NCBI GenBank assembly: GCA_003725745.1
Contig: RHDP01000001.1
Coordinates: forward strand, 3,673,001-3,737,000
DNA length: 64,000 bases
Reading direction: 5' to 3'
Source: Streptomyces sp. I6
GTDB taxonomy: Bacteria > Actinomycetota > Actinomycetes > Streptomycetales > Streptomycetaceae
Shown: positions 14,554 through 29,793 of the stretch, piece by piece
Layout: every line of letters starts with the position of its first letter
How positions within the stretch are numbered: position 1 is the stretch's first letter
Notes under the pieces: model-generated
The model's input: the letters and a program-made list of their open reading frames with translations, nothing else
The model's database searches: none
Told to the model about the DNA's origin: nothing
Translations under genes and position numbers: made by a program

Positions 14554-14917
14554 GCCTCCACGGTACGGAACGCCCCGCTTTCCTCCTCTCCCGGGTCCCC
14601 CGATCGCGCCCCCCCCGCGCACCGCTTCCCGGCGGCTGGCGGCGCCGGCCGCCAGGTCCCGCTGCCGTCCCGCTGCCGTCCCGCTGCCGTCCTGCTTCTG
14701 CCTTCCTCCTGCCTTCCGACTGCCTCCGTTCCGGTCGGGGGTTCGCTGTCGTCAGGGCTCGGGTGCCGTCCGACTCACCGCGCGGCCATGACTCCGGCCG
14801 TCGGACCTCCCGGCGCCGACCTGCTCCCCGTGTCGTGCGGCTCCCCGCGGCGTCCGAACCCCGGCCCTCCGGCTCCCCGTGCCGTCCGGGGCGCGTGCCA
14901 CACGGGCCCGCGGCCGC
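14554..14917. other. Gap with an 11-bp triplet repeat
   Basis: No supported gene. CGCTGCCGTCC occurs three times in tandem around 14660-14695, followed by further CTGCCTTCC-like copies to 14730. Confidence 0.45.
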
Positions 14918-16771
14918 CTACCGCAGGTGTCTCTCCACGAAGGCCAGCTCCAGCCGTACCTGCTTGATCCGCTCCTCCACCACCAGCGAGCCGTGGCCCG
15001 CGTCGTACCGGTACACCTCGTGAACCGCGCCGCGCGCCGCGAGGCGGTCCACGTAGTTCTCCACCTGGCGGATCGGGCAGCGCGGGTCGTTGACCCCGGC
15101 CGAGATGTAGACGGGAGCCGTGACCTCGTCCACATACGTCAGCGGGGACGAGGCCCGGTAACGCTCCGGTACCTCCTCCGGCGTGCCGCCCAGCAGCGTC
15201 CGGTCCATCGCCTTCAGAGCCTCCATCTCGTCGTGGTAGGCCGTGACGTAGTCCGCGACGGGCACCGCCGCCAGGCCGAGGGCCCAGGAATCGGGCTGGG
15301 TGCCCAGGCCGAGCAGCGTCAGATAGCCGCCCCACGAGCCACCCGACAGAACCAGCCTCGCCGGATCGGCCACGCCGGAGGCCACGGCCCACTCGCGGAC
15401 CGCCGCGATGTCCTCCAGCTCGATCAGTCCGACACGGTGCTTCAGCGCGTCCGTCCACGCCCGCCCGTAACCGGTCGAGCCCCGGTAGTTGACCCGGACG
15501 ACCGCATAGCCGTGGTCCACCCAGGCCGCCGGCGCGGCCGCGAACGCGTCGCTGTCGTGCCAGGTCGGACCGCCGTGGATGTCGAAGACGGTCGGGAACG
15601 GCCCCTCTCCCCGGGGCCGCTGCACCAGAGCGTGGATGGGACCGCCGGGGCCATCCACCCACACGTCCTCCACTCCCACCGAGCCGGGCGCCTTCATCCC
15701 CGGCGGGTCCAGCACCTCCCGCCCCGCCGTGGAGCGGACCTTCGGCGGCTGCGCGGCGGACGACCACAGGTACTCCACCGTCCCGTCCGGCCTGGCCGTC
15801 GCGCCCGAGACCGTCCCCGCCGGGGTGTCCACCCGGGTCAGCTCACGGGTGGCCGGGTCGAACCGCCACAGCTCGCTGCGCGCCTCGAAGCTGTGCGCGA
15901 CGAGCAGCGCGGAGCCGTCCGGATACCACTCCGCGCTCACGTCGCCCGGCAGGTCGAGCGCCAGGTCGGTCTCCTCGCCCGACACCGCGTCCCACAGCAT
16001 GGGCTCCCAGCGCCCCCGCCGCTGGTGGCCCACCAGCAGCCGGGTGTCACCGTGCACCGGGGCGAAGCCGAGGACCTCCAGCCCCAGCTCCTCCGAGCCG
16101 CCCTTGGTGTCGTCCAGCTCGCCCACCGGCGTGCCGTCCAGCCGGACGATCCGCAGCGCCGAGTGCATCGCGTCGCCGTGCTCGGTGTGCTCCAGTGCGA
16201 GCAGCGTCCCGTCGTGGGAGAGGTCGCCGACGCCCGCGGACTCCCGGTGCCGGTAGATCTCCACCGGCGCACCGCCGGGCCGCATCACATGGATCGTCGT
16301 TCCGTCCTCGTCGGTGGAGCGGCCCACCACCGCCGTCCCGTCCCGGCCGAGGGCGAGGCCCGCGCTGTACGAGGGTGCGAGGCCCGGCGTGGCCGGTTGG
16401 TCCGGCCCGCCGCCGAAGGGCTGCCGCATCCAGACGCCGTACTCGTCGCCGTCCGTGTCCGAGAACCACCAGATCCACCCGCCGTCGGGAGTGAGTATCC
16501 CGTCCGTCGTGCCGTTCGGCCGGTCGGTCACCTGGCGCTGCTCGCCGGTGGCGCGGTCCCACGCGTACAGCTCGTACGTCCCCGTCGCGTTCGAGACGAA
16601 GAGGGCACGGTGCGGGGCGTCCTCCGCCCAGTCGGGCAGCGAGACCCGGGGCGCGCGGAACCGCTGCTCCCAGGCCGGCATGTCCGCGGACCCGCCCGCA
16701 CGGCCCGCGGGCGGGTCCGCGGGAACGGCTGCGGGCGCGTCGGGCGCCGTGGATTCGGTGATCTCAGTCAT
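14918..16771 (-). CDS. S9 family serine peptidase (prolyl oligopeptidase / acylaminoacyl peptidase type)
   Basis: A cytoplasmic peptidase of 617 residues that would cleave short peptides. An N-terminal beta-propeller (about 45-350; repeats such as YELYAWDRATGEQRQVTD) gates a C-terminal alpha/beta hydrolase domain (about 370-617). The catalytic Ser lies in LVLSGGSWGGYLTL, Asp probably in SAGVNDPRCPI and His in YDAGHGSLV. ATG 16771 starts the family-like MTEITESTAPD; the long frame upstream is antisense to the GNAT region and not coding. No signal peptide is seen. Typical length. Confidence 0.93.
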   Translation of the reverse strand: MTEITESTAPDAPAAVPADPPAGRAGGSADMPAWEQRFRAPRVSLPDWAEDAPHRALFVSNATGTYELYAWDRATGEQRQVTDRPNGTTDGILTPDGGWIWWFSDTDGDEYGVWMRQPFGGGPDQPATPGLAPSYSAGLALGRDGTAVVGRSTDEDGTTIHVMRPGGAPVEIYRHRESAGVGDLSHDGTLLALEHTEHGDAMHSALRIVRLDGTPVGELDDTKGGSEELGLEVLGFAPVHGDTRLLVGHQRRGRWEPMLWDAVSGEETDLALDLPGDVSAEWYPDGSALLVAHSFEARSELWRFDPATRELTRVDTPAGTVSGATARPDGTVEYLWSSAAQPPKVRSTAGREVLDPPGMKAPGSVGVEDVWVDGPGGPIHALVQRPRGEGPFPTVFDIHGGPTWHDSDAFAAAPAAWVDHGYAVVRVNYRGSTGYGRAWTDALKHRVGLIELEDIAAVREWAVASGVADPARLVLSGGSWGGYLTLLGLGTQPDSWALGLAAVPVADYVTAYHDEMEALKAMDRTLLGGTPEEVPERYRASSPLTYVDEVTAPVYISAGVNDPRCPIRQVENYVDRLAARGAVHEVYRYDAGHGSLVVEERIKQVRLELAFVERHLR

Positions 16772-16822
16772 GCCCCCATTCTGCGCCGCGGCACCCACGA
16801 TTGGTTCGCCCTCTCCGCTGCC

Positions 16823-16831
16823 TGTGGATAA
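16823..16831 (-). promoter_or_regulatory. Single DnaA-box-like site
   Basis: TGTGGATAA, the reverse complement of the DnaA box TTATCCACA, sits in the gap between the S9 peptidase and the GNAT gene. A lone box may simply be one of many that titrate DnaA. Confidence 0.4.
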
Positions 16832-17027
16832 CCTCCGCGACATGCATCCATCACCCTCTCCGGATCGGCGCGGGACCGACCGTGCCCGGTGGGACCAAGC
16901 GTCCCGGGACACGCGCGCGGCCTGAGCCCGCGCACTGGGCCCGCGCCCCGGAGAGCGCGGCGCGGGAGGCGGGGCTGAGGGGCTGCTTCCCGTGTGCACG
17001 CGGATAGCGCCGGCATGCGGCGAGTTC

Positions 17028-17633
17028 TCACACGACGGTGGGGCTGCGCCGTTCGAGGAGGACCACATCCCGCCACAAGCCGTGGTGGAGGCCGATGCGT
17101 TCACGGGTGCCGATGACCCGGAAGCCCATCCTCCGGTGGAGGGCGAGGCTGGCCTCGTTCTCGGGGAACACGCCGGACTGGACGGTCCAGATGCCCGCGG
17201 CCTCGGTCGAGGCGATGAGCCGGGACAGCAGGGCGCGGGCCACGCCCCGGCCACGGGCGGAGGGGTGGACGTACACCGAGTGCTCGACGACTCCGGCGTA
17301 CGCGCAGCGGTCGGAGACGGCCGACGCCGCGACCCACCCGAGCACTCGGGCGACGTGGTCGGCGGCGACCCTCGTGTCTCCGGGAGCACTCGTGTCTCCG
17401 GCGACTCCCGTGGCGGCGGGAGCGCTGGCGGTCCCGGCGGGCGCCCGGTGCGCGGCCGGTACCGGAGCGAAGTCCTCCAGGGCGACGAACCGATGCTCCG
17501 TCAGCCTCCCCGCGTCGAACTCGGGCCAGGTAGGGGCGCGGGTCTCGAAGGTCGCGTCTCCCTCCTCGATGCCGAGCCGGTAGACGGCGAGTACCTGCTC
17601 CGCATGCGTGTCCGCCATCGGAACGACGATCAT
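17028..17633 (-). CDS. GNAT N-acetyltransferase (phosphinothricin acetyltransferase-like)
   Basis: A 201-residue acetyl-CoA-dependent acetyltransferase. The acceptor side resembles the PAT group (MADTHAEQVLAVYRLGIEEGDATFE). The acetyl-CoA loop reads HPSARGRGVARALLSRLI (about 130-147), followed by ALHRRMGFRVIGTRERIG. An Ala/Thr/Pro-rich insertion of about 35 residues (about 58-92) interrupts the usual fold and looks like a repeat-driven expansion. The substrate is unknown. ATG 17633 gives the expected N-terminus. Upstream DNA (17640-17790) is a low-complexity run of CTTGCGTCGCCTGC-like copies. Confidence 0.85.
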   Translation of the reverse strand: MIVVPMADTHAEQVLAVYRLGIEEGDATFETRAPTWPEFDAGRLTEHRFVALEDFAPVPAAHRAPAGTASAPAATGVAGDTSAPGDTRVAADHVARVLGWVAASAVSDRCAYAGVVEHSVYVHPSARGRGVARALLSRLIASTEAAGIWTVQSGVFPENEASLALHRRMGFRVIGTRERIGLHHGLWRDVVLLERRSPTVV

Positions 17634-17897
17634 GGCCGCGTCCCCTCCCCTCGAGTCCGTCGCGCCTCTCGAGTCCGTCGCAACCCTTGCATCTGTTGCA
17701 TCGCTTGCCCCCCTTGTCTCCCTTGCACCTCTTGCGTCGCCTGCGCCTCTTGCGTCGCCTGTGTCGCCTGCGCCCCGAGCCCCCGCAGCATACGGACACC
17801 ATCACGCGGCCGGGAGCCCGTGCTTCCGCGGGAGGTGCGCGACCGGAAGCCGGAGGGAAGAGGGCGGCGGGAGCCCGTGCTCACGAGGGGAGGGGGT

Positions 17898-18590
17898 TCA
17901 GGCGATGCGCTTGAGCGTCGCATAGACGACGAGATTGCCGAGGTAGCCCGTCCTCTTGGTGTAGCCCCCGCCGCATGTGATGACTCGCAACTGGGGAACG
18001 GTGGTGCCTGCGTACACCTTCGTGCTGGGGAAGGAGTGCTTCGCATATACCTCGACGGCGTCCACGGAGAAGTGCGCCGTGCGCCCGTCGAGCCGGGTGA
18101 CCTGGATGGCGCTGCCCTTGGTGAGCGCGCCGAGCCGGTAGAAGACGGCACGGCCGGTCGGGGTGTCGACATGGCCGGCCACGACGGCCGCACCGACCTC
18201 CCCCGGCGCGGGTCCTCGGGAGTACCAGCCCGCGAGCTGTGCCTTGTCGACCGGCGGCACCTCCAGCACGCCGTTCTTCCCCAGGGCCAGGTTCATCATC
18301 GGGGTGTCCACACCGATGGCCGGGATGCGCAGCCGCACCGGAACGGAGCGCGGCCGGGGCCCCGGTGGCGCCTTCGGCGCCTTTCCGGGGGCCGGGGCGG
18401 CGAGAAGGGCCGGGACGGCGGGCCCGTGGGAGGGCGTCGCACTCGGTGCCGGAGCGGTGAAGGCCTGGGCGGCGGACGGCTGGGGAGCCGTCTCGCCGCG
18501 CAGCCCGTGCATCAGCAGGCCGATGCCGACCAGCAGCATGACGCCGAAGATCCTCATCGGCGTGAAGAGGGGGGAACGTCTGCGTCCCAT
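17898..18590 (-). CDS. Class F sortase
   Basis: A 230-residue membrane-anchored transpeptidase-like enzyme outside the membrane. One N-terminal transmembrane helix (MRIFGVMLLVGIGLLMHGL, about 12-30), a Pro/Ala-rich linker, then the sortase barrel (about 85-230). Catalytic His is in VVAGHVDTPTG, Cys in RVITCGGGY, and the Arg is probably in the following KRTGYLGN. Class F sortases are the actinobacterial group whose substrates are poorly known. The gene upstream (18656-19150) encodes a secreted protein with a C-terminal membrane anchor and is probably the partner; the two are 65 bp apart on the same strand. Confidence 0.92.
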   Translation of the reverse strand: MGRRRSPLFTPMRIFGVMLLVGIGLLMHGLRGETAPQPSAAQAFTAPAPSATPSHGPAVPALLAAPAPGKAPKAPPGPRPRSVPVRLRIPAIGVDTPMMNLALGKNGVLEVPPVDKAQLAGWYSRGPAPGEVGAAVVAGHVDTPTGRAVFYRLGALTKGSAIQVTRLDGRTAHFSVDAVEVYAKHSFPSTKVYAGTTVPQLRVITCGGGYTKRTGYLGNLVVYATLKRIA

Positions 18591-18655
18591 AGCGGTCCGG
18601 GCTCCGGTCTCGATGACGGAGGTGGCGGGTCCCGTCGGCCGGCGCCGGGGGAGGC

Positions 18656-19150
18656 TCAGGCCGCCGAACCGCTGCCGTGCCGGCGCCGCAGTGTGAGGAG
18701 ACCGCCCGCCGTCGCGGTGAGGACGAGCGCGGCCCCGATGGCCAACTCCGTACCGTTCATTCCGCCGCCGCCGCCGAATCCACCACTCACCGCGCCGTTC
18801 GGGCGGCCGGCGACCTCGAACTCGGAGTTGACACGGACTCCGGGAGGACACTTGACCGTGATGTCGTACGTACCTTCCTTCGCGTTGTCGGGAACGGTGA
18901 ACGTGCCCTCCAATTGCCCGGCGCGGCCGCTCTCGACCAGGTTGATCTGACCCCCGATCTCCGCCTGGCCCTTGGCGTAGGTCGCCTCCGGGTCGCAGAC
19001 CCCCTCCGTACTGACGGTGATGGTCGAGCCCGGGTAACCCACCTCGGGACTGACCGTGACCTCGGACCCTTCGGCGACTGCCGCGGGAGCCGAAATGCCC
19101 AGTGCGGCCAGGGCCAGGGCACTGCCGGCGAGAAGACGTGCGGTACGCAT
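18656..19150 (-). CDS. Secreted membrane-anchored protein paired with the sortase
   Basis: A 164-residue exported protein. A signal peptide (MRTARLLAGSALALAALG ... APAAVA, about 1-27) precedes an Ig-like beta domain (EVTVSPEVGYPGSTITVST onward, about 30-120) with two Cys that may pair. A Gly-rich linker and a C-terminal hydrophobic helix followed by RRRHGSGSAA resemble the tail of a sortase substrate, but no LPXTG-type motif is visible before the helix. ATG 19150 has GGAGG nine bases upstream. It is transcribed into the sortase gene. Its function is unknown; the context suggests a surface protein handled by the neighbouring sortase. Confidence 0.8.
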   Translation of the reverse strand: MRTARLLAGSALALAALGISAPAAVAEGSEVTVSPEVGYPGSTITVSTEGVCDPEATYAKGQAEIGGQINLVESGRAGQLEGTFTVPDNAKEGTYDITVKCPPGVRVNSEFEVAGRPNGAVSGGFGGGGGMNGTELAIGAALVLTATAGGLLTLRRRHGSGSAA

Positions 19151-19510
19151 GTTCACCACCCTCCGAGTGGCGCGGGCCAGGACTCGGTGTCCCGACGATG
19201 ACGCCGCGCTTCAGGGGGACAGGCAACCAGCTCTTGTGATCAAACGACCGCAGCGAAATGACCCGGCGATTCCGCGCCCATGGCGTGCCGCGGCATTCCC
19301 ACAGGTCGTGGCCGCCGCAATACGCTCAAGGGCGGAATCTCCCAAGGGCCCGGCGAACGGGTGGCGACACGCGGGTCGTCCGCACCACCGGGCGTGTCGC
19401 GAGGAGCCGCCGGGGCGCCGGAGGACCGGCCGTGCCGGGCCGGTTCCTTGCCCGTCGGCGGACCGCGGTACCCGACGGCTCTCGGGACATCCGCGATCGC
19501 CGGTCCCCGG

Positions 19511-19598
19511 GCGACGGTCTTCGTGCGTGCGGAGGGCGGGCCAGCCCGTTCTGGAGCGCCCTGACCCGTGCCGCGACGGTCTTCGTGCGTGCGGAGGG
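19511..19598. repeat. 26-bp direct repeat pair
   Basis: Identical 26-bp copies beginning GCGACGGTCTTCGTGCG at 19511 and 19573, 62 bp apart (start to start). Neither is inside a supported gene. Confidence 0.7.
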
Positions 19599-19700
19599 AG
19601 AGCCGGGTGCCGGTCCTCGTCGCTGCCGGGAAGGACACGGTCCACGTCCACCCGGACATGCCGATCGTCTGCGACGCGGCCTCGGCCGGGGGACGGTCCG

Positions 19701-19980
19701 GATTCCCCCTCGCCGACTGCGACGCGGACCGGGACGGGTGCGGCGTCCGGGCGGTGGATTCCCCTTGGCCGCGTGCGACGCGGACCGGGACGGGTGCGGC
19801 GTCCGGGCGGTGGATTCCCCTTGGCCGCGTGCGACGCGGACCGGGACGGGTGCGGCGTCCGGGCGGTGGATTCCCCTTGGCCGCGTGCGACGCGGACCGG
19901 GACGGGTGCGGCGTCCGGGCGGTGGATTCCCCTTGGCCGCATGCGACGCGGACCGGGACGGGTGCGGCGTCCGGGCCGTC
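19701..19980. repeat. Five tandem 56-bp repeats
   Basis: Units start at 19701, 19757, 19813, 19869 and 19925. The three middle units look identical; the outer two differ at a few bases, as expected for an array that grows by slippage or unequal crossing-over. Each unit holds CGGAC ... GTCCG, able to form a weak hairpin. Since 56 is not divisible by three, each copy is read in a different frame, so the array is not coding. Confidence 0.9.
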
Positions 19981-20035
19981 GGCATTCCGTACAGCGCCTG
20001 CCCGTGTCCCGGGTCCCCGGCCCCAGGGCGCGTTC

Positions 20036-21307
20036 CTACGCCCGACCCGACAGGTCGTCCACCAGAAGGTCGAGGGTGACCTCCTCGTGGAGCGCGACCC
20101 CGAGAGCGGTCATGGCGGGGGCGAGACCCGCGTCCCAGGCCGCGTCGACGGGCCGGCCGTCGAGCGGCAGCCGGGGGATTCCCCCGGTCTGGCCGCGAGC
20201 GGCCAGGTGCTCGTAGTCCTCGACGCCCATGCGCCACGGCCGGGCCCCGTAGCGGCTGATCATCCGGTTCGCCAGAGCGATGCCCGGCCAGTCGAAGTCC
20301 CCGTGGTACACGAAGCGGCAGCCGGTGGCGGCGAGGGCGTCGAGGAGGGTGAGGACCACCGTGGCGGCGCTGCCGGACGTGCACACCAGGGGGTGGAGGC
20401 AGGCGGCGTCCGCCGCGGCTTCCACCACGCGCGGGTTCTCACAGATGTGGACCACCGTCCCGGCGGGTAGGCGCAGCCGCAGGTCGTGCAGATCGCGCGG
20501 TGTGAGATGGGCTTCGGTGTGATGACCGGCCCGCTCCCGCAGGGCCTGCTCCCGCCAGCCTCCGCCGACAGGCCGCAGCCCGTAGGTCAGGACGGTGCTG
20601 GAGACCTCGTCCGGGGTGACGGACACCAGCCGCCACAGGGCGCGCCGGCCGGCCGCGTCGCCGGGGAACCCGGTGCCGTGGGCGAGGGCGACACCGCGTT
20701 GGACGAGGCGTGCGAGCCAGGTGCCGTCGTCCAGACCGTGTGCGGATCCGGTGGCCAGGGCGGCGAGTTCCCCTCGGCCGCGGGGGCCTCCCCGTTCGGG
20801 GCCGAGCAGCACGGTGAGGACCTGCACCGCCTGTCGGAGCGTGCGTACCGCCGTTTCAGGTGTCACCCCTCCCGGTACGCCGGTCCGGCGGAGCAGTTCG
20901 TACCACTGGCCGGTCCACTCCTGGCCGGCGAGCGGGGAGGCGTCCAGCGCCGAGGCGAGCGACGACCATATGTGCGCGCGCCGTGCCGCGATGCCCGCGC
21001 GGACGGCACGGCGGTCGGTGAGCGGAGGGCCGAGTTCCGCCACGGCGTCCCTGAGCCCGAGCCCGGCCGCCGAGTCGCGCAGACGCCTGTCGAGCACATC
21101 GAGGCGCACGGTCACGGCGGCACCCGTGACGGGTTTGCCCAGCAGGAGCGACAGGTCGTTGCGTTCCCGGGCGCTCACCGAGGTGAGCCGGAGGGAACCG
21201 GTGGCCTGCACGCCGTTGCTCTCCAGGCGCTTGCGTACCGCTTCCCAGAGCCGGGCGAGCCCGGGACCGGCGAGCCAGTCCCGTGTCGCCTCGGGCAGCC
21301 TGCTCAT
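20036..21307 (-). CDS. jetD: Wadjet type II nuclease subunit JetD (TIGR02679, DUF2399)
   Basis: A 423-residue protein matching the TIGR02679 group. Its C-terminal DUF2399 part is a Toprim-like domain related to topoisomerase VI: the metal-binding residues appear to be Glu290 (in VVHICENPRV) and the DxD pair Asp337/Asp339 (in YHGDFDWPG). The N-terminal half is helical with a Leu-rich start. In Wadjet, JetD cuts DNA after the JetABC loop extruder recognises a small closed circle. It is the last gene of the operon and overlaps jetC by four bases (21304-21307). Length is normal and all key residues are present. Confidence 0.9.
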   Translation of the reverse strand: MSRLPEATRDWLAGPGLARLWEAVRKRLESNGVQATGSLRLTSVSARERNDLSLLLGKPVTGAAVTVRLDVLDRRLRDSAAGLGLRDAVAELGPPLTDRRAVRAGIAARRAHIWSSLASALDASPLAGQEWTGQWYELLRRTGVPGGVTPETAVRTLRQAVQVLTVLLGPERGGPRGRGELAALATGSAHGLDDGTWLARLVQRGVALAHGTGFPGDAAGRRALWRLVSVTPDEVSSTVLTYGLRPVGGGWREQALRERAGHHTEAHLTPRDLHDLRLRLPAGTVVHICENPRVVEAAADAACLHPLVCTSGSAATVVLTLLDALAATGCRFVYHGDFDWPGIALANRMISRYGARPWRMGVEDYEHLAARGQTGGIPRLPLDGRPVDAAWDAGLAPAMTALGVALHEEVTLDLLVDDLSGRA

Positions 21308-24300
21308 ACGGACACCAGACGCCGGTGCCGGCCGTTCCAGGCGTAGTGCAGGGTGGCCACCCCGCGCACATGGGGATCACGGAGGCACTCGTAGATGTGC
21401 AGGGACGGCACTTCCGGCCAGTTGCCCATGAGCCGCTCACTGGTGAGGACGAAGTCGAGATCGAGATCGACGAGGATGCGACCCAGCCGCCCGTGGGTGG
21501 GTTCGTCGACCTTCGCGAAGGCGTCGTCCAGCAGGATCAGCCGCGGCGCGTGCGGTGCCGACTCCGCGAGACTCGTGAAGTGGGCGGCGGCCGCGGCGAA
21601 GAGCACGAGGTAGGAGAGCACCCGCTGCTCGCCCTGGCTGAGTCCGGTGCGGCCGGTCAGTTTCCGTCTGCGCCCCGGGGCGGCGTCCTCGACCACGAAG
21701 GTGTGGAAGCGGAACCAGTCGCGGTAGTCCAGCGCGGTCCGCAGATGGGCGGCGTAACCGGCGGCGGGATCGGCCCGCCGGGCATCCTCGATCCGGCGTT
21801 GCAGCACCTCGCGGAGCTGCTCCGTCTGCTCACGCGTGCGCAGGGTCGACGGGCTGCGCAGCAGCTCCACGGCCGCCCTCACGTCGGCGTCCGCGTCCTC
21901 GTCCAGCTTCCACAGCAGCTCCACGCCGAGACCGTGGGAGGTGCGTACGGTCCGAAGGGTGTCGTTGAGAGCCGCGACCAGGTTCGCCGCGGTGATGACC
22001 TGGGCCGAGAGATGGTCACCGAGTTCACCGGTCAGGAACCGCTGGAAGACGTCGCGTTCGCGCTCGGTGAGCCGTCCCCGGGCCTCTGCCGCCTCGACGG
22101 CGATGCGCTCGCCCACCGCCGCGACGTCGTGGGAGCCGTGGTCGTCGATCAGCCGGCACACCTTGATCCCGTCGCGTTCCTCCAGTTGCGCGTCGTAGCC
22201 GCCGGCCAGTTGGTCGCGCAGTTCGGTGTGGCGGTTGAGCAGGGCACTGTCCGACACCTCGCCCCTCGATCGGCCGAGGGCGTGTTCCACGGCGTCGGCC
22301 AGTGCCCGCAGCGCCCTCAGGCGGCTGCGGACATCCGAGCCGGGATCGTCCACCACGTCCTCCGGCAACGAGGACCGGTCCAGGCCGGCGCCGCGCACCA
22401 CCTCCGGCCGGCCGAGCGCGCCGCGCAGGGTGCTGCCGCTGCCGATGACCGCCGCCTCCTGGTCCGCCAGGAACCCGCGCAGGCGCTTCTCGTCCTCCTC
22501 CGCGCGCACCCGCAGGTCGTGGAGGTCGTCCCGGGTACGCTGCGCCGCCGGGACGGCCTGGGCGGCGTGCGCGATGCGCCGTCTGGTCTCCCGCTCGCGG
22601 GCGAGGAGACCCTCCTCGGTCGCCCCGATGGCCTCCTCGCGGGTGCGCAGGTCCTGCTCGGCGGTGCGCAGGCCGGTGAGGCGGAGCCGGTAGCCCTCCT
22701 CCGCGGCCAGGCGGTCTTTCCGGGCGCGTTCATACCTCTCGGTATCGGCGTGCCGGGTGCCCAGCCGCTCGCCCGTGCCGCCGATCGCCCTGCGAAGATG
22801 CCCGATGCCGGTGAGAAGGGCGGCCAGCGCAGTGCGTACGCGTTCCAGTTGCACGGGGTCGCCGGGCAGGTCGTGGGCGGTGGCGGTGGCGTCAGCCTCG
22901 GCGCGTGCGGCTACGGCGAGAGCGCGGGCCTCCTCGGCCAGCCGCGCCGCGCCGGTCGCCTTGGCGGTCAGGTCGCTCAGCGCCCTCTCACGGGACTCGA
23001 CCCTGCTCCAGGCGTCGGCGAGGCCTCGTGCCCGGGGAAGTCCTGCTCCGCGAGCCTGAGGGCCCGGCGCCGGGCATCGGCCTCGGCGAGTTCCCGGCGG
23101 GCTTCGGCCAGCCGCTGTTCCGTCCGTGTGAGCCGCTCCTCCAACCCGGCGAGGATGCGCCGCCGGGTCTCGGCGCGTACCGCGGCCCCCACATACTCGG
23201 CGTCACTCTTGTGGTGCCGGCCGCTGAGGATGCCCAGACGCCAGCTTCCGTCGTAGTACACCGCGTCCTGCGCCGTCGTTTCCCCGGCCGGTGCGAGCGC
23301 GACGGCGGTCAGCAGGTGTTCCACCTGCTCGGACGTGACCCCGCACCCGGGCTGGGGTGAGGGGCGCAGGGCCGAGGCGAGGGTCGGTCCGTCCGGCAGC
23401 GCGGGGCCGGGACGCAGCAGGGTGTCGCGCGTCGCGGGATCGGAGAGAGCGCCGTCCGCGCCGACCCACGCGTCCAGGATCCCGCCGGCCTCCAGAGCCG
23501 CTTCCAGGCCGGCCCGATGCGCGGGGCTCAGATCATCGGTGAAGTCCACCAGCCGGTAGAAAGGGGCCCCGGTGCCCGGCGTCCTTTCGGCGGCCCGGTG
23601 GTGGGGGACCGGCGGCTCCGGATCGGTACGTCGCTCCCAGTCGCGCTTCTCACTCGACAGGCGGTCGAGTTCCTCGCCGAGCCGGCCGACGGTGAGTGCC
23701 AGAGCATCGCGGCGCCCGGTGAGTTCCTCCCCGTACGGCTCCAGTGCGGCATGGGCGGCCTGCCACACCTGGCCGTCGACGCCGGGCGGCAGCGTACGGT
23801 CCGCGAACGGGGCGTCACCGGAACTCTCGCAGGCGACCATGGTGAGGACGGCGTCCAGCGGCGGGCAGCCGTACCCGGCCGAGGCCCGCGTGCGGGCCAC
23901 CCACTCGGCCACCCGGCGGGCATAGGCACCGCTTTCCCCGGCCACCTCCCGGCGGTCGGCGTCGAGGCGGCCGGCGGCCTCTTCCGCCTCGCCTTCCAGC
24001 CGCTCCCGCTCGGTGTCGGCCTGCGCCGCCCGGCCCCGGGCCTGCTGGGCCCCCGCGGCGAGGCGGGTCACCTCCTGGACCATGCGCGCCCGGTTCCTCA
24101 CGACCGTCTCGGCGTCCGCCAACTGCCCCTGCCAGGAGCGCAGTCCGTTGCGTACCGCGGCCGTGTCCACGCGGACGGCCGATGGGTGCTGCACGGTGTG
24201 CGTCTCCCCGTCCGGAGAGGTCAGCTGCGTCTCGGCGGCCTGGGAGCGGACCGTGCGGGGCAGCGCGACCGCCTCGCCGAGATGGCCGGTGGGAAGCCCG

Positions 24301-25595
24301 GCCTTCTCCGCCTGCGCCAGCAGTTCCCGGTGCTCGGTGCCCAGTTCGGTGAGCCGGCTGCCGAGATGGTCGACTCCGTCGGCCAGCCGCTCGGCCGCGC
24401 CCTCCTCCGCACCGTGCGCGTTGCCGAGGCCGGTGAAGGCGGCGACGGCGGCGGCGTGCAGCGCCTCGACCGTGCTGCGGCGTTCCGACAGTTCGCGCAG
24501 GCTGCGGAAGGCGTGGCCGGCGTGCAGGGCGGCGAGGTCGGTCCGGGCGGCTTCCTCCTCTTCACACAGGGTCTCCAGCCGGGCCGCCGACTCCTCCTCC
24601 TGCGTCCTCAGCTCGCTGGTCCGCTGTGCGGCGTCTCCGGCCGCCCGGCGACGCTGTGCGAGGACCGCCAGCTCCCGGCCCACCGCCTGCGCGGAGGTGC
24701 GCAGGACTCCGGACAGGTAGCCGCGGTAGCTGGTGAGGAAGGTGCGCAGCGCCGTGTCGGTGCGCTCCAGGCGGCCGAGTTCGCCGCGTACGGCGTCGAG
24801 GTCGTGGAGGTTGCGCGCGACCTTCTCGACCACCTCCTCGTCCAGTCCCGGGAGGGTCTCGCTCAGGAGGGAGGCCAGTCCACCGTGCTCGATCCGGTCC
24901 CCGACCGTGGGCCGCCGCAGCCGGTGGAGGAGCTGGGTGAGGTTGCGGTAGCGGGTCGCATCGGTGATGCCGAACAGTTCCCGTGCCACCCGCGAGCGGT
25001 GGACGACCGCGCGGTCGGTGATGCCGTCGGAGCCGATGACCTCCTTGAGCCGGTCGACCGGCAGGGGCTTTCCGCCTTCGACCAGGTGCAGGTGCTCACC
25101 GATGCGCAGCGGAGTGACGAAGAACGTCGGCAGCGCCTTCTGCGTCGACTTCGAGGCGCGGATGGCGGCGCCGAGGGTGAGGTGGCGGTGATCGCCTTCG
25201 GCGGTCGTGCCGCGGAACTCCACCCACAGGTAACCGAGACGGTTGGTCTGCGCGAAACCGTCCAGCATCAGCCAGGCGAGGGTGGTCCGGCCGGTGCCCG
25301 TCGCGTCGAGCGCCCGTGAGTCGCCGTCCAGCAGATACGGCAGCAGCATCTCCAGGGCCTTGGACTTGCCCGCGCCGTTCTTGCCGCGCAGCAGCAGCCG
25401 TCCGTCGCCGAAGGCGAATTCCTGCTCGTCGTACTGCCAGACGTTCTGGATCCCCGCGCGGTGCAGCCGGAAGCGGGTGCCGGCGGTTGTCGTGGTGCCG
25501 GCGGTCGTCGTGGTGCCGGCGGTTGTCGTGGTGCCGGCGGTTGTCGTGGCGCCGGAACGCGGCAGTGGGACGAGCCCACGCGCATCGGTGGTCAC
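21304..25595 (-). pseudogene. jetC: Wadjet type II SMC-like ATPase JetC (TIGR02680), one frameshift
   Basis: An SMC/SbcC/MukB-like motor of about 1,430 residues. Walker A is GKNGAGKS (residues 71-78). A long coiled-coil middle follows, with a hinge-like region around residues 590-760. The signature LSQGEQRVLSYLVLF and Walker B PRLILLDDAFAKVD lie near the C-terminus. The frame breaks once, within 23021-23026: adding one base turns HEASPTPG into a continuous coiled coil (LADAWSRVESRERALSDL). An N-terminal Thr-rich tract (TTTAGT four times) comes from an 18-bp repeat. It overlaps jetB (25592-25595) and jetD by four bases. The break fits the assembly-error pattern seen elsewhere; if real, the defence system would be dead. 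Confidence 0.9.
25477..25548 (-). repeat. Four 18-bp repeats in the 5' end of jetC
   Basis: Units at 25477, 25495, 25513 and 25531, each close to GTGCCGGCGGTTGTCGTG on the plus strand, encode Thr-Thr-Thr-Ala-Gly-Thr in JetC residues about 17-40, just before the ATPase head. Copy number could vary between strains without a frameshift. Confidence 0.85.
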
Positions 25596-26917
25596 AACGG
25601 CAACTCCTCCTGGACGTCGGTGCTCTTGCCCGCTGCCGCGGCCGGGCGGACGGTCACGCGGGTGGCGTAGCGTGCTGCTGCGGCCGACAGCACCCAGCCC
25701 TCGCCGCCGGGACGTGCCCCGCGCACGCCGGTCACGGGGCGCCCCTCCGGTGCCTCTTCGGCGTACCCCTCCGGCAGGCCGTCGCCCTCGGCGCGCAGGC
25801 GGCCGCCGCGGGCCATCAGCCGCATGCGGGCCAGCAGGTCCAGCACGGCCTCCCGCAGGGCGGGGACGTCCTCCAGATAACCGCGCTGCCAGTTGCTCCG
25901 CTGCCCGTACTCGCCGACCAGTTCGGCCAGCAACTCGTCCACCAGGCCGTCGGGGACGGCCACACCGATCACCAGCGTCCCCCCGGTCGCCGGGTGTCCG
26001 GGCTCCCGCGGCCGAAGCCGCTCCACGAGCCGTTCCACCAGCAGCAGCGCGGCCTGCGCCACCGTCCCGGTACCGGGCAGGTGCAGATCCGTCAGCTCGT
26101 CCTCGGGGTCCACCAGAGCCACTCCCTCGGCGCGGATCTCCATCTCCAGGCCCAGAAGTTCGGAGAACGCCTGCGCCTCCCGGCGCTGCCGGGTGCGCAG
26201 CCAGTCGCGTTCGGCGCCGGTCAGCTCGTCGAGGTGGACGACGGGTGTCTCGACGAGCATCCGGCGCACATAGACGCGAGGTCCGCCGAATCCCGGGTCC
26301 GCTGCCCGCCGCACCAGGTCGGCCCCGTCACGGGCCCGGGCGAGCGGGCCGGCGACGACGGAGCGGGCCAGCTCGCGGTCGACGGTGATCAGGGCCTCTC
26401 CGTCCGCATCCTGCGCGAGCGCGGCCACCCGGCCCTCGGTCTCGACGAGGACGCCCCACTCGACCAGCTGCCGCAGGGCCGCTACCAAGGTCCGCTTCCC
26501 GGCCGCCCTGCCCGTCTCCTCCAGCTCGATCTCCGCGTCGGCCGCGGCGGCCCTGACGTCGGCCACCAGCTGTGACAGCAGCAGCTGTTCGGGGGCGGTC
26601 ACCAGTACGGACAGGGCCAGCGCGAGGCAGGCGTACGTGTGCGGGCTGAACGGGGTGCCGGTGGAGCGCTCCAGCCGGTGGCCCGCGCCCGCCCCCAGCC
26701 CCGCCTTGAACAGCCGGGCATAGGAGCCGTCGACCAGCAGGCGGTAGCCGAGCACCTGCTGGAACCGCTTGCCCAGCCAGTCGGCATGCCTGCGGATCAG
26801 CGGGAAGAGGTCCGCGTGCGGGCCGTCCGAAGTGACCAGCGGATGGGCGAGCAGCAGCCGGGCGGCGCTGCGGCGCTCGGCCGCCAGGGCGACGTCGTGT
26901 GTCGAGGGGAGCGTCAT
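25592..26917 (-). CDS. jetB: Wadjet type II subunit JetB (TIGR02678, DUF2398)
   Basis: A 441-residue protein of the TIGR02678/DUF2398 group, the MukE/MksE-like winged-helix subunit (KITE) that bridges the SMC heads. The N-terminus (ERRSAARLLLAHPLVTSDGPHADLFPLIRRHADWL) and the wing region (RQLVEWGVLVETEGRV, then YVRRMLVETPVVHLDEL) are typical. It lacks catalytic motifs. ATG 26917 overlaps jetA by four bases and the stop overlaps jetC by four, so the subunits are likely made in fixed proportion. The frame is intact. Confidence 0.9.
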   Translation of the reverse strand: MTLPSTHDVALAAERRSAARLLLAHPLVTSDGPHADLFPLIRRHADWLGKRFQQVLGYRLLVDGSYARLFKAGLGAGAGHRLERSTGTPFSPHTYACLALALSVLVTAPEQLLLSQLVADVRAAAADAEIELEETGRAAGKRTLVAALRQLVEWGVLVETEGRVAALAQDADGEALITVDRELARSVVAGPLARARDGADLVRRAADPGFGGPRVYVRRMLVETPVVHLDELTGAERDWLRTRQRREAQAFSELLGLEMEIRAEGVALVDPEDELTDLHLPGTGTVAQAALLLVERLVERLRPREPGHPATGGTLVIGVAVPDGLVDELLAELVGEYGQRSNWQRGYLEDVPALREAVLDLLARMRLMARGGRLRAEGDGLPEGYAEEAPEGRPVTGVRGARPGGEGWVLSAAAARYATRVTVRPAAAAGKSTDVQEELPL

Positions 26918-28632
26918 GACACGCTCGCCTCCGCACCGGCGGCGGCCGTGCCGGAGGAGGTGCGGCCGACGTCCAGCTCCAGGTCGTCCAGCAGCAGGTC
27001 GCCGTCGACCGAGCGCAGGACGCACCGCGCTCCCGCGGTGCGCCGCACGGTGAGCCGGATGCCCAGCTCGGCGTCCGCACTGTGCGCCCCGTCGAGGTCG
27101 AACTCCGTCATGCCCTCTCCGCCAACGCTCCCGTTCCCATTCCCGTTCGCGTTCCCATTCCCGCTCCCGTTCGCGCCGGCGCGACGCCGGAGCTGTGCGT
27201 TCCCGAGTGCGGTGGCCAGCAGCTCCAGAAGCAGTCCCAGCGCTTCCGAGGTGAGGCGCACCTCCGCGAACCGGCCCGACGAACTGCGCAGTTCGTCCGC
27301 CGCCGCGGCCCTGGCCGCCGCCCGCTCACGGGCGGCCTCCCTCAGCCGCCGCTTCTGCGCGGAGTGGTCCTCCACCGCGGACGCCCGGCCCCGCTGGGCG
27401 CGACTGCCCCTTTCCCGCAGGGCCACCGGAACCTCGACCACCGGGCCGGTCCACCAGCTCGTGTAGGCCGGGACCACTTCGTCGGTGGCCGGGGGTATGC
27501 CCAGATGGCGGGCGCCGTACAGCCCGAAGGCCGCGACGGCGATGTCGTGCGCGTCCTGCGGGGCCGCTCCGTCGAACCACCGGGCCAGCCGCAGCAGATC
27601 CCTGCGCCGGGACATCTCCCCGGTGGCCGACCGCAGCATCCGCTTGGCATTGGCGAGTAGCGACTGCAACGCGCGCAGGGTGGCGTCCCGCAGCTGGTCG
27701 ACCTGGCTGCCGTCGCCGTGGGTGTCGCTGAACCACCCCCGGAGGCCCTCCCAGTCGGCGAACTCGCGCCCGCGGCTGCGCAGGACCCGCGTCTCCGGTA
27801 GGCCGTCGCCCTGCGGCGAAAGGCCGGCGAGACCCTGTGCATGGGCGTCCAGCCGGGCCAGCAGGCCCGGGACGTGCGGCCACAGCGTGTCCAGCGCAGC
27901 CGAGATCCGGGGCGCACGGAACGCCACGTCCTCCGTGATCGCCTCGACGTAGTCGAGGAGCAGCTGCTTGAAGCCCTGGTACTCGGCACCGTCCAGGTCG
28001 TACCGGGCCAGAACCTGGCCGAGGTAGGCGTAGAAGTCCCGGACGGAGTCCGCGAACTCGGAGAACTGCACGAACAGCGTGCTGACCCGCTCCAGCCCGT
28101 CCTGCGGTTCGATGCCGCCGGGAGCGGTCACGAGTTCCGCCAGCTCCCCGAGTCCCCGCTCGACGAGGGCGAGCAGCTCATTGCTCACTTCCCGGGCGGC
28201 ATCCGCCTCGGCCAGCACGCCGTCGGCGTCCCGCTGGATGCGCCCGCCCAGCTTCGACAGCTGGTAGCGCGCACGGGACCGCTGGTACTCGCTGATGCTG
28301 GAGGCCTTCACGGTGTGGCTGCTGCGCAGCAGGTTTCCCCACCGCACCAACTGCTCCAGCCGGACCGTGAGTCCATCGGCGTCGAGCCCGGCCGCCGGGC
28401 CGCCGTCCTCGCGCAGCTTGGCCAGGACGTCCGGGACGGCCAGGTCCGCCAGCAGGGTCCCGCAGAAGACCCGCATGATCGCGAGATGCTCCAGCCGCTC
28501 GGGTGCGCCGAGGTAGCTGTACGCGTCCAGCCGGCGGCGCGCTTCGCTCTGCCCGTCCGGCGCTGCGGGTCCCGGCGCTGCGGGGTTCTGCCCTGCGGTG
28601 TCATGCGCTGCGCCGGGTGCGGGTGGCTCCAT
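26914..28632 (-). CDS. jetA: Wadjet type II subunit JetA (TIGR02677, DUF2397)
   Basis: A 572-residue protein of the TIGR02677/DUF2397 group, the kleisin-like (MukF/MksF) subunit. The start of the conserved domain reads LEHLAIMRVFCGTLLADLAVPDVLAKL. A long helical middle (about 150-330) and a Lys/Arg-rich helix (HSAQKRRLREAARERAAARA) precede a C-terminal winged-helix part. An Asn/Gly repeat near residue 495 is a linker. ATG 28632 is chosen because the family motif begins about 45 residues later; the frame is open further upstream through the DUF397 gene, which is probably a separate protein. First gene of the four-gene operon. Confidence 0.88.
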   Translation of the reverse strand: MEPPAPGAAHDTAGQNPAAPGPAAPDGQSEARRRLDAYSYLGAPERLEHLAIMRVFCGTLLADLAVPDVLAKLREDGGPAAGLDADGLTVRLEQLVRWGNLLRSSHTVKASSISEYQRSRARYQLSKLGGRIQRDADGVLAEADAAREVSNELLALVERGLGELAELVTAPGGIEPQDGLERVSTLFVQFSEFADSVRDFYAYLGQVLARYDLDGAEYQGFKQLLLDYVEAITEDVAFRAPRISAALDTLWPHVPGLLARLDAHAQGLAGLSPQGDGLPETRVLRSRGREFADWEGLRGWFSDTHGDGSQVDQLRDATLRALQSLLANAKRMLRSATGEMSRRRDLLRLARWFDGAAPQDAHDIAVAAFGLYGARHLGIPPATDEVVPAYTSWWTGPVVEVPVALRERGSRAQRGRASAVEDHSAQKRRLREAARERAAARAAAADELRSSSGRFAEVRLTSEALGLLLELLATALGNAQLRRRAGANGSGNGNANGNGNGSVGGEGMTEFDLDGAHSADAELGIRLTVRRTAGARCVLRSVDGDLLLDDLELDVGRTSSGTAAAGAEASVS

Positions 28633-28642
28633 GCCTGCGAGG

Positions 28643-28896
28643 TTACGCGGCGCGTTCGGCCGCCACCGCGGGTGGCCGAAAATGCCCGGGCTTCCGCCCG
28701 GCCAAGCCCCTGCTCCGGACCGCGCACCCGCCGCGAGTGGGAGAAGGTCCGGGAGGAGCAGCGCGGGGAGGGCCCGCATTCCCGTGTCCTTGGAGTCCCG
28801 TACGCGGACAGTGCGCGGGGTCACGGCCACCTCGACGCAGTTGCCGCCGCCGCCGCTGTGGCTGCCCTTGAACCAGTCCGGTTCGGTGGCGCTCAC
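28643..28896 (-). CDS. DUF397 protein (small regulator partner), 3' end unclear
   Basis: GTG 28896 with ribosome site GAGGAG starts ATEPDWFKGSHSGGGGNCVEV and continues RTVRVRDSKDTG, which is the DUF397 family. These 60-85-residue proteins usually pair with DUF5753 HTH regulators, and here GTGA overlaps the preceding regulator. No stop is met before the jetA start in this frame, so either one base is missing (a shifted frame would stop at 28643-28645) or the gene runs on into jetA as a fusion. The former fits the other single-base losses. The end coordinate is therefore a guess. Confidence 0.6.
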
Positions 28897-29479
28897 AACG
28901 CTCCTCGCATCTGCTCCAGCAGGCTCGCGGTGGCCGTCCGGCTCAGAGCCTGCGAGCGCATCTTTCCCTAGCGTCGGAGCACGCACTGACCGGTTTCGGG
29001 TCGGTGACGAGCGCGCTGTTGTCATGCGCTTCGACGTATCCGACCCACTTGTTTTCCTGGGTCTGCGCCAGATACTGCGGCCCCTCGAACCCCGAGTGGT
29101 CTTCCTGACACGGCGGCATGACCAGGATCTCGACGTTGCGACGACTGCCCTGCTCCAGCAGGTTGTCAAGGAGAGCGCGAGCAACCTCACTGCCTCCCGC
29201 CCTGCGTTCCGGCAGGGCCTCTTCGACCACGAAGGACAACTCCGTGTTGGGGCGCTCAGCGAGGAGCTGTTGCCGTTCCAGACGAGCGGCGACCTGTCGC
29301 TCGAACCGCTCCTCGCGGAGGGGTGGCAACCTGCGGTCGAAGACGGCCCGGATGTACGGCTCCGGCTGCAGCAAACCGGGGATCGCGCAGGCTTCGTACG
29401 CGTACGACGACACCGCCTCCTCCCCGATCTCCGCCCACTGCTGGAACCAGGAAGCCAGCCCCGCCCTTCGGGTCAGGCT
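28893..29479 (-). pseudogene. 5'-truncated DUF5753 (XRE-type) regulator with a late frameshift
   Basis: The conserved DUF5753 ligand-sensing domain is present: ASWFQQWAEIGEEAVSSYAYE, IPGLLQPEPYIRAVFD, VAARLERQQLL, VMPPCQEDHSGFEGPQ, ENKWVGYVE. The ~90-residue N-terminal helix-turn-helix expected in this family is missing: upstream of about 29479 the translation becomes unrelated low-complexity sequence. Near the C-terminus (28966-28968) adding one G restores GKMRSQALSR ... LLEQMRGAL and a stop that overlaps the DUF397 start as GTGA. So the 3' break is probably sequencing error, while the 5' loss looks like a real rearrangement beside tRNA-Pro. Confidence 0.7.
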
Positions 29480-29665
29480 CCGCGCCGCGGCGGCCGCCCT
29501 CCCGCTGGGGCGTCGCGGAGCGCACCGGTCCCGGCAAGGCGCTGTGGGCGGAGCTGGACCTCCGCCCGGGGCGGCCGGACACCCTGGGTAGCCGCGCCGG
29601 GCGGCCCACCCCCTGTTCGTCACTCACTGCGGCCGCAGACCGTCACGCGGATAGACGCCCAGGCC

Positions 29666-29706
29666 AAAAAGGTGAGGCACCGACGAACATTCGTAGGTGC
29701 CTCACC
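29666..29706 (-). terminator. Strong intrinsic terminator of tRNA-Pro
   Basis: An 11-bp perfect inverted repeat (GGTGAGGCACC at 29671-29681, GGTGCCTCACC at 29696-29706) with an inner 5-bp stem ACGAA/TTCGT. On the minus strand it is followed by five T residues (29666-29670), a textbook terminator 14 bases after the tRNA. Confidence 0.85.
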
Positions 29707-29719
29707 TGGTGTTTCACTG

Positions 29720-29793
29720 TCGGGGTGGCGGGATTTGAACCCACGACCTCTTCGTCCCGAACGAAGCGCGCTGCCAAGCTGCGCCACACCCCG
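29720..29793 (-). tRNA. tRNA-Pro (anticodon CGG)
   Basis: A complete 74-nt cloverleaf on the minus strand. Acceptor arms CGGGGTG and CACCCCG pair with discriminator A at 29720. The anticodon stem-loop reads CTTCG-TTCGGGA-CGAAG with anticodon CGG (reads CCG). The T arm contains GGTTCAAATCC. CCA is not encoded. tRNA 3' ends are frequent integration sites, and this one points toward the truncated regulator and the Wadjet operon. Confidence 0.95.

What the first reader, a model, noticed from the sequence alone, without database searches (positions are those of the whole stretch)
20036..28632. Complete type II Wadjet (JetABCD) anti-plasmid operon
Four minus-strand genes match, in order, TIGR02677/DUF2397, TIGR02678/DUF2398, the SMC-like TIGR02680 and TIGR02679/DUF2399. 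Each overlaps the next by exactly four bases. JetC keeps Walker A, signature and Walker B; JetD keeps Glu290 and the Asp337/Asp339 pair of the Toprim nuclease. Wadjet systems extrude and cut small circular DNA, so this locus may lower plasmid uptake in the host. Type II is studied less than type I.
Basis: partly seen in the sequence, partly recalled or inferred. Interest (0 to 1): 0.8.

Follow-up and report, generated by a model that had tools for sequence, protein, structure and literature searches.

The report
Streptomyces type II Wadjet anti-plasmid operon
This stretch of a Streptomyces chromosome carries a four-gene system of a known kind that recognises and cuts small circular DNA such as plasmids; it is an ordinary member of that kind, with one gene split in this assembly (possibly a sequencing error), sitting in a chromosomal slot that several relatives also use.

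Summary
The operon is real and is type II Wadjet. All four proteins pass their NCBIfam cut-offs (jetC as two halves), order A-B-C-D, four-base overlaps, and JetD's Toprim acids are invariant in 44 of 44 aligned sequences. "Complete" does not hold for the sequence as given: jetC changes frame between about 23,019 and 23,046. One open frame is seen in 61 of 69 testable relatives, and both halves evolve under constraint. The host assembly shows an excess of frame breaks, so an assembly indel (about 0.7) is likelier than a real recent lesion. The kind is known: a Neobacillus type II complex is solved (9qe0/9qe1) and cuts circular DNA. New here is the location: between a tRNA-Pro(CGG) gene and a core S9 peptidase gene. 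Nine other named Streptomyces loci of the same JetD clade show one or both flanks, and one relative holds a pSAM2-like integrative element in that tRNA gene. pSAM2-type Rep genes are not rarer in genomes with the SMC family. New member of a known kind; low to moderate interest.

The parts
26914..28632 (-). jetA (DUF2397, kleisin-like subunit), 572 aa
   Evidence: TIGR02677 191.8 bits over cut-off 165.85; PDLC00541 JetA2 725 bits; profile of 34 JetA matches 9qe0_E JetA, E 6.5e-38; model matches 9qe0_E by fold, E 1e-11 (mean pLDDT 73)
25592..26917 (-). jetB (DUF2398, KITE-type subunit by analogy), 441 aa
   Evidence: TIGR02678 142.7 bits over 124.65; JetB2 406 bits; profile of 31 JetB matches 9qe0_D JetB, E 5.9e-18; single-sequence search found nothing
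22977..25595 (-). jetC, 5' part: Walker A, N-terminal arm, presumed hinge; stops after 872 aa in this assembly
   Evidence: TIGR02680 positions 1-789, 663.9 bits; JetC2 791 bits; 9qe0_A JetC, E 9e-41
21304..23046 (-). jetC, 3' part in another frame: C-terminal arm, signature, Walker B
   Evidence: TIGR02680 positions 784-1356, 510.3 bits; 9qe0_A JetC, E 9.4e-22; SbcC_Walker_B
23019..23046 (-). stretch in which the reading frame of jetC changes
   Evidence: frame model call at 23019; 39 of 43 query genomes change frame in this gene, the three places listed at 23037; match boundaries
20036..21307 (-). jetD (DUF3323 + DUF2399), Toprim nuclease, 423 aa
   Evidence: TIGR02679 240.6 bits over 196; JetD2 461.7 bits; E290, D337, D339 invariant in 44 of 44; fold like MksG 8b7f, Topo VI-A 1d3y and JetD 7til
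29719..29793 (-). tRNA-Pro(CGG); its 3' end faces the operon, 1.09 kb from jetA; integration site of an element in a relative
   Evidence: tRNA-Pro(CGG) upstream of jetA in 6 of 60 scanned named loci; pSAM2-like element with a 43-base copy of the tRNA end in L205
28943..29623 (-). DUF5753 regulator-like gene between tRNA-Pro and jetA; not shown to belong to the system
   Evidence: PF19054 109 bits; no HTH domain reported
17898..19226 (-). sortase-domain gene downstream of jetD, kept in S. pacificus L053; a neighbour, not part
   Evidence: PF04203; 90% in L053
14918..17389 (-). S9 peptidase gene, other border of the variable interval
   Evidence: PF00326; matched at 78-84% in all 24 other same-genus genomes (in G017 over part of its length)

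Best explanation
This is a chromosomal type II Wadjet operon of a Streptomyces. By homology, JetA (kleisin), JetB (KITE) and JetC (SMC ATPase) form a dimeric DNA motor that extrudes loops. On a small circle the two motors run out of DNA and stall, and the docked JetD Toprim nuclease then cuts the circle. Linear or very large DNA is spared, which in this genus should spare the chromosome and linear plasmids. The four genes overlap by four bases, which suggests translational coupling. The operon belongs to a Streptomycetaceae clade in which several members sit beside a tRNA-Pro(CGG) gene, in an interval where relatives carry other accessory genes and where one relative holds an integrative element. 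The jetC frame break in this sequence is most likely an assembly indel. SHOWN here: family, order, overlaps, conserved motifs and acids, predicted JetD and JetA folds, location. INFERRED from work on other Wadjet systems: extrusion, circle recognition, cleavage, plasmid restriction. UNRESOLVED: whether jetC is intact in the living strain.
For: NCBIfam, PADLOC and Pfam. Sequence matches to Neobacillus vireti Wadjet-II JetA, JetB and JetC. JetD fold matches and invariant acids. Four-base overlaps kept: jetA/B in 33 of 45 testable loci, B/C 24 of 24, C/D 31 of 33. JetC in one open frame in 61 of 69 testable relatives, Walker A pattern in 60 of 61. dN/dS 0.20-0.38 for all parts against S. pacificus. 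Frame-break rate in the host assembly 13.5 per 100 kb against 2.0, 6.0 and 8.0 in three other genomes; 6 of 51 gene clusters frame-broken by homologues against 1 of 69 in the three others together; completeness 87.4% in only two contigs. Location.
Against: jetC is split in the sequence as given. The nearest relative at the same site, S. pacificus, has GKNGASKS instead of GKNGAGKS in Walker A, so JetC lesions may be accumulating in this lineage; 8 of 70 relatives were flagged broken. The frame-break model was trained on control G015, which flatters that control; against the other two genomes the excess is about twofold. In a check with relatives' ORFs, 124 of 130 were single-frame in the window and, of the nine model calls, only the one at 1149 was seen there (jetC was not covered by those ORFs). 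pSAM2-type Rep genes are not rarer in genomes with TIGR02680: mean 2.60 (65 genomes) against 2.03 (134), Mann-Whitney p 0.12, and this host has 5 matches.
Confidence: 0.72

Rival explanations
1. The jetC break is real and recent. The strain makes a JetC stump with Walker A, one arm and hinge but no signature or Walker B, so the ATPase and the whole system are dead and the operon is an early pseudogene.
For: The break is in the sequence, with a net length difference that is not a multiple of three to 8 of 8 close relatives aligned. Broken or shrunken copies exist in relatives: 8 of 70 flagged, e.g. L056 with a large part of jetA and jetC gone. S. pacificus has an altered Walker A.
Against: Excess of frame breaks in this assembly, among them a conserved gene at 1149 in the same window seen by 4 of 4 query genomes; no model call inside jetA, jetB or jetD; own-branch N/S of the 3' half no higher than that of S. 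pacificus (0.27-0.36 against 0.40-0.54; the 5' half is mixed).
Confidence: 0.22
2. The complex serves mainly chromosome organisation, like MukBEF or MksBEF, and not defence.
For: JetA model also matches MukF (9gm7, 3euh). The operon sits near the middle of the chromosome (3.69 of 6.94 Mb), whereas a published survey puts more than 43% of Lamassu and Wadjet systems in chromosome arms (PMC10482375, passages).
Against: JetD follows jetC in the relatives aligned and its Toprim acids are invariant in 44 of 44; patchy presence, TIGR02680 over cut-off in 65 of 199 same-genus genomes.
Confidence: 0.05
3. The operon is cargo of an integrative element of the pSAM2 type inserted in tRNA-Pro, used to exclude rival circular elements.
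For: The same tRNA holds an element with integrase, RepSA and FtsK genes in L205, ended by a 43-base copy of the tRNA end. In L081 the jet operon lies between tRNA-Pro and a 41 of 43 copy, about 18.6 kb away.
Against: No clear second copy in the window: best 26 of 43 against 24 in one shuffle; longest exact match in 14901-29700 is 12 bases against 10-14 in 20 shuffles. No integrase among the 10 flanking ORFs scanned, nor among the 8 L081 ORFs scanned.
Confidence: 0.1

Closest known systems
Wadjet type II of Neobacillus vireti LMG 21834 (nvJET; PDB 9qe0, 9qe1)
   Same: JetA, JetB and JetC match by sequence. nvJET cuts naked circular DNA and has a hinge without a channel (PMC12647877, passages; the structure paper it cites, Structure 2025, was not read).
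   Different: Distant bacterium. No JetD of a type II system turned up in the PDB searches, so JetD was compared only by fold with type I. Hinge channel of the Streptomyces JetC not tested. jetC is split here.
Wadjet type I / MksBEFG (E. coli GF4-3, P. aeruginosa PA14, C. glutamicum)
   Different: No JetA1, JetB1 or JetD1 model within E 0.001; JetC1 27 bits against JetC2 538 for the 3' half.
Type II Wadjet operons of Streptomyces pacificus, S. lucensis, S. albus subsp. chlorinus and others
   Same: 87-91% JetD identity for the three named, same order; S. pacificus also keeps the sortase and S9 genes beside it.
   Different: jetC reads in one frame there; S. pacificus has an altered Walker A.
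Topoisomerase VI A subunit / Spo11
   Different: Different partners and role (recalled); a catalytic tyrosine was not looked for here.

Membership tests
Wadjet type II | four proteins of TIGR02677, TIGR02678, TIGR02680, TIGR02679 over their cut-offs | tested here: met
   TIGR02680 met by each half on its own
Wadjet type II | operon order jetA-B-C-D on one strand | tested here: met
   four-base overlaps, as in most testable relatives
Wadjet type II | best PADLOC models are of type 2 for all four | tested here: met
Wadjet type II | SMC ATPase motifs in JetC | tested here: met
   sequence (5' and 3' halves); in relatives Walker A pattern 60 of 61, loose Walker B pattern 61 of 61, strict signature pattern 44 of 61
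Wadjet type II | Toprim nuclease acids and fold in JetD | tested here: met
   E290, D337, D339 invariant in 44 of 44; their place at strand ends in the model; fold
Wadjet type II | JetABC related to a solved type II complex | tested here: met
Wadjet type II | jetC is one open frame in the organism (condition for activity, not part of the family definition) | tested here: inconclusive
   split in the sequence as given; intact in 61 of 69 relatives; assembly has an excess of frame breaks
Wadjet type II | cuts small circular DNA, lowers plasmid uptake | not testable with these tools
   needs bench work
Wadjet type II | hinge without a channel (reported for nvJET) | not tested
   no JetC model was made
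Wadjet type I | JetA1, JetB1, JetD1 protein families | tested here: not met
   no such model at E 0.001
AICE of the pSAM2 kind | flanking copies of the tRNA 3' end | tested here: not met
AICE of the pSAM2 kind | integrase, RepSA and FtsK genes beside the operon | tested here: inconclusive
   none among the 10 flanking ORFs given to Pfam; of the 5 RepSA matches of the own genome, the two whose places are listed lie at 3.04 and 4.77 Mb

The most novel reading that the evidence does not exclude
A distinct Streptomycetaceae branch of type II Wadjet has a home beside tRNA-Pro(CGG), a gene that in a relative is the attachment site of a pSAM2-like element, and acts there as a guard against, or as an exchangeable cargo of, such circularising elements: defence and prey compete for one chromosomal slot.
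Probability: 0.12. Interest if true: 0.55.

Novelty: new member of a known kind. Interest (0 to 1): 0.27.

Why it matters
TIGR02680-type SMC genes are common in this genus (65 of 199 genomes over cut-off), and plasmid transfer into these antibiotic producers is a practical bottleneck (recalled). The genus is also a natural test of the circle-sensing model, because its chromosomes and many of its plasmids are linear (recalled). The recurrent tRNA-Pro(CGG) location next to an integration site gives a concrete place to look for natural prey and for exchange of defence genes. The frame break is a caution: counts of defence systems from indel-rich assemblies can mis-score long SMC genes.

Tried and rejected
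Chance or mis-annotation: rejected, scores over curated cut-offs.

Frame break shared by the family or programmed: not supported. Of 70 named loci with both jetC halves, 62 were flagged as one open frame and 8 as broken; L125 was set aside because only its 3' half aligned, which leaves 61 of 69. Of the 8, L056, L060, L074, L079, L096 and L101 break or stop elsewhere by their match ends; L130 is probably an artefact of where the match starts; in L126, a distant Cryobacterium copy, the change lies somewhere after residue 803 and could not be placed, so the same place is not excluded there.

Depletion of pSAM2-type Rep genes in genomes with the SMC family: not seen, direction opposite. The counts per genome were copied by hand; relatedness was not corrected; the first look scores at most 8 candidates per genome; the TIGR02680-positive set holds all subclades of that family in the genus, not only this one.

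A universal home beside S9: rejected. I compared 30 of the 65 genomes, one jetC copy each, both genes on one contig: 3 lie within 40 kb and 4 within 50 kb. At least three more with both on one contig (G082, G096, G101, jetC match in pieces) were left out; by the places they are 1.7 Mb or more apart. In two of the 30 (G025, G108) a second jetC copy lies nearer, about 74 and 125 kb.

Attachment copies in the window: none clear. Plasmids and phages: JetD in 17 of 72,556 plasmid records, the 6 with at least 80% coverage on records of 0.45 Mb or more; in 0 of 50,697 phage records. Size was not tested against a background. A sequence match of JetD to the PDB: none that holds, although the fold matches. 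Promoter and terminator scan: nothing. Ends of the second contig: no overlap and no terminal repeat of its own, left unresolved.

Literature: Wadjet with pSAM2, no paper; tRNA-Pro, 'defense hotspot' and Streptomyces, two of three terms, 54 papers of which 10 were listed, none on this site by title and abstract start; TIGR02679/TIGR02680, one unrelated paper. Passages were seen of PMC10482375, PMC12287153, PMC10123090, PMC10586767 and PMC12647877; other papers only as listings.
Full report
What is there. The window is G000:C1:3673001-3737000 of a genome of 7.05 Mb in two contigs, completeness 87.4%; the nearest named relatives are Streptomyces, so I take it for a Streptomyces. On the minus strand lie jetA 26914-28632, jetB 25592-26917, jetC 21304-25595 and jetD 20036-21307, with overlaps of exactly four bases. 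All four pass NCBIfam cut-offs, with PADLOC JetA2/B2/C2/D2 as best models and Pfam DUF2397, DUF2398, SbcC_Walker_B, DUF3323 and DUF2399. The genome has one TIGR02679 match and two TIGR02680 matches, which are the two halves.

The jetC break. The 5' part ends after 872 codons; the rest of the family model continues in another frame. The change lies between about 23019 and 23046. The island 661-846 just before it, kept in distant copies, is presumably the hinge (inference). Of 70 named loci with both halves, 62 were flagged as one open frame and 8 as broken; without L125, whose 5' part did not align, 61 of 69 are intact. Six of the eight break or stop elsewhere, L130 is probably an artefact, and in the distant L126 the place could not be fixed. 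Intact copies thus exist, and no close relative shares the break.

Error or lesion? A frame model that I wrote found 54 breaks in 400 kb of this genome (13.5 per 100 kb) and 9 in the 64 kb window, against 8 in 400 kb of G015, 12 in 200 kb of G005 and 16 in 200 kb of G079. The model was trained on G015, which flatters that control; G079 is itself 78% complete. With ORFs of twenty relatives, 124 of 130 that covered the window by 80% were single-frame; the break at 1149 was seen by four, one more place (about 9700) by one, and the other model calls were not seen, so some may be false (jetC not covered there). With ORFs of all relatives, 6 of 51 gene clusters of this genome were frame-broken, against 1 of 36 (G015), 0 of 20 (G005) and 0 of 13 (G079); two of the six rest on a single ORF that probably spans two neighbouring genes, which leaves 4 of 49, jetC included. 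Against S. pacificus dN/dS is 0.20-0.38 for jetA, jetB, both parts of jetC and jetD. The own branch has no more replacement change than the S. pacificus branch in the 3' part of jetC; the 5' part, jetB and jetD are mixed, on small counts. A lesion, if real, is recent. On the other side, S. pacificus itself has GKNGASKS in Walker A, the only one of 61 without the pattern. I put an assembly indel at about 0.7.

Where it sits. Downstream come a sortase gene and an S9 peptidase gene that all 24 other same-genus genomes searched also have; 1.09 kb upstream of jetA lies tRNA-Pro(CGG), its 3' end towards the operon. Of 20 relatives read for up to about 17.5 kb upstream of S9, 5 have this tRNA-Pro with other genes between: L205 holds integrase, RepSA and FtsK genes and a 43-base copy of the tRNA end, i.e. 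a pSAM2-like element; L194 holds a split copy of that end; L209 a type II methyltransferase. In the other 15 no tRNA-Pro was found in the stretch. Among the 60 of 80 named jet loci scanned, 6 have tRNA-Pro(CGG) upstream of jetA on the same strand (L072, L073, L080, L081, L083, L085); of all 80, S9 follows on the same strand in L053, L061, L071 and L085, and L074 has it on the other strand. On a JetD tree of 50 rows (window and 49 of the 80 loci) the 10 rows with either flank, L074 not counted, all fall in one 35-row clade and none among the other 15; the label needs 7 changes, and 14 of 500 shuffles are as low. A label 'no' can mean only that the flank held is too short. So an old home with losses and repeated arrival at one slot cannot be told apart. 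In L081 the operon lies between tRNA-Pro and a 41 of 43 copy of its end, which fits arrival on an integrating element; L080 carries a helicase-nuclease with a match to PDC-S37 downstream. The window has no clear second copy.

Function. The mechanism (loop extrusion to completion, then cutting by JetD) comes from type I work, and nvJET cuts naked circular DNA (PMC10586767 and PMC12647877, passages). For this operon it is inference. One test of the plasmid-exclusion idea gave no support: RepSA matches average 2.60 in 65 genomes with TIGR02680 over cut-off and 2.03 in 134 others, medians 2 and 2, p 0.12; 59 of 65 and 119 of 134 have at least one. This host has five. Integrated elements may escape the system, so this is weak evidence either way.

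How common. TIGR02680 is over cut-off in 65 of 199 same-genus genomes drawn. A published survey finds Wadjet in 42% of Actinobacteria, and more than 43% of Lamassu and Wadjet systems in chromosome arms of Streptomyces (PMC10482375, passages); this copy is central (3.69 of 6.94 Mb). The finding is therefore an ordinary member of a common kind; the location is the one point worth following.

Noticed in passing
window 19700-19976: Tandem array of a 56-base unit, 4.9 copies, 97% alike, between jetD and the sortase gene.
   Followed up: partly
window 25476-25555: 18-base tandem repeat, 4.4 copies, codes for the start of JetC ahead of Walker A; L053 has a longer, different version, so the leader varies.
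   Followed up: partly
L053 5838-5861: JetC of Streptomyces pacificus, the nearest relative at the same site, reads GKNGASKS where 60 of 61 have the Walker A pattern.
   Followed up: partly
window about 1149: A conserved gene changes frame here according to 4 of 4 query genomes; further sign of indels in this assembly.
   Followed up: partly
L205 1298-14613 (G005): pSAM2-like element (integrase, RepSA, FtsK) in the same tRNA-Pro(CGG), ended by a 43-base copy of the tRNA 3' end.
   Followed up: partly
L081 2415-21083 (Streptomyces sp. NBRC 110028): Type II Wadjet operon between tRNA-Pro(CGG) and a 41 of 43 copy of its 3' end, 18.6 kb apart; no integrase among the 8 ORFs scanned.
   Followed up: partly
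G000:C2, first 500 bases (L213): The 119 kb second contig shares about 140-150 bases (94%) with two places, in opposite orientation, in the end region of the chromosome contig; possibly a linear replicon or a chromosome arm.
   Followed up: partly
L056 (S. poonensis), L104, L105, L106, L110: Decayed or partial copies: large parts of jetA and jetC missing in L056; only jetD matches in the others, some of which lie near contig ends.
   Followed up: no
L085 11211-14933: A large NB-ARC / WD40 protein directly after jetD in Streptomyces iconiensis; no PADLOC match.
   Followed up: no
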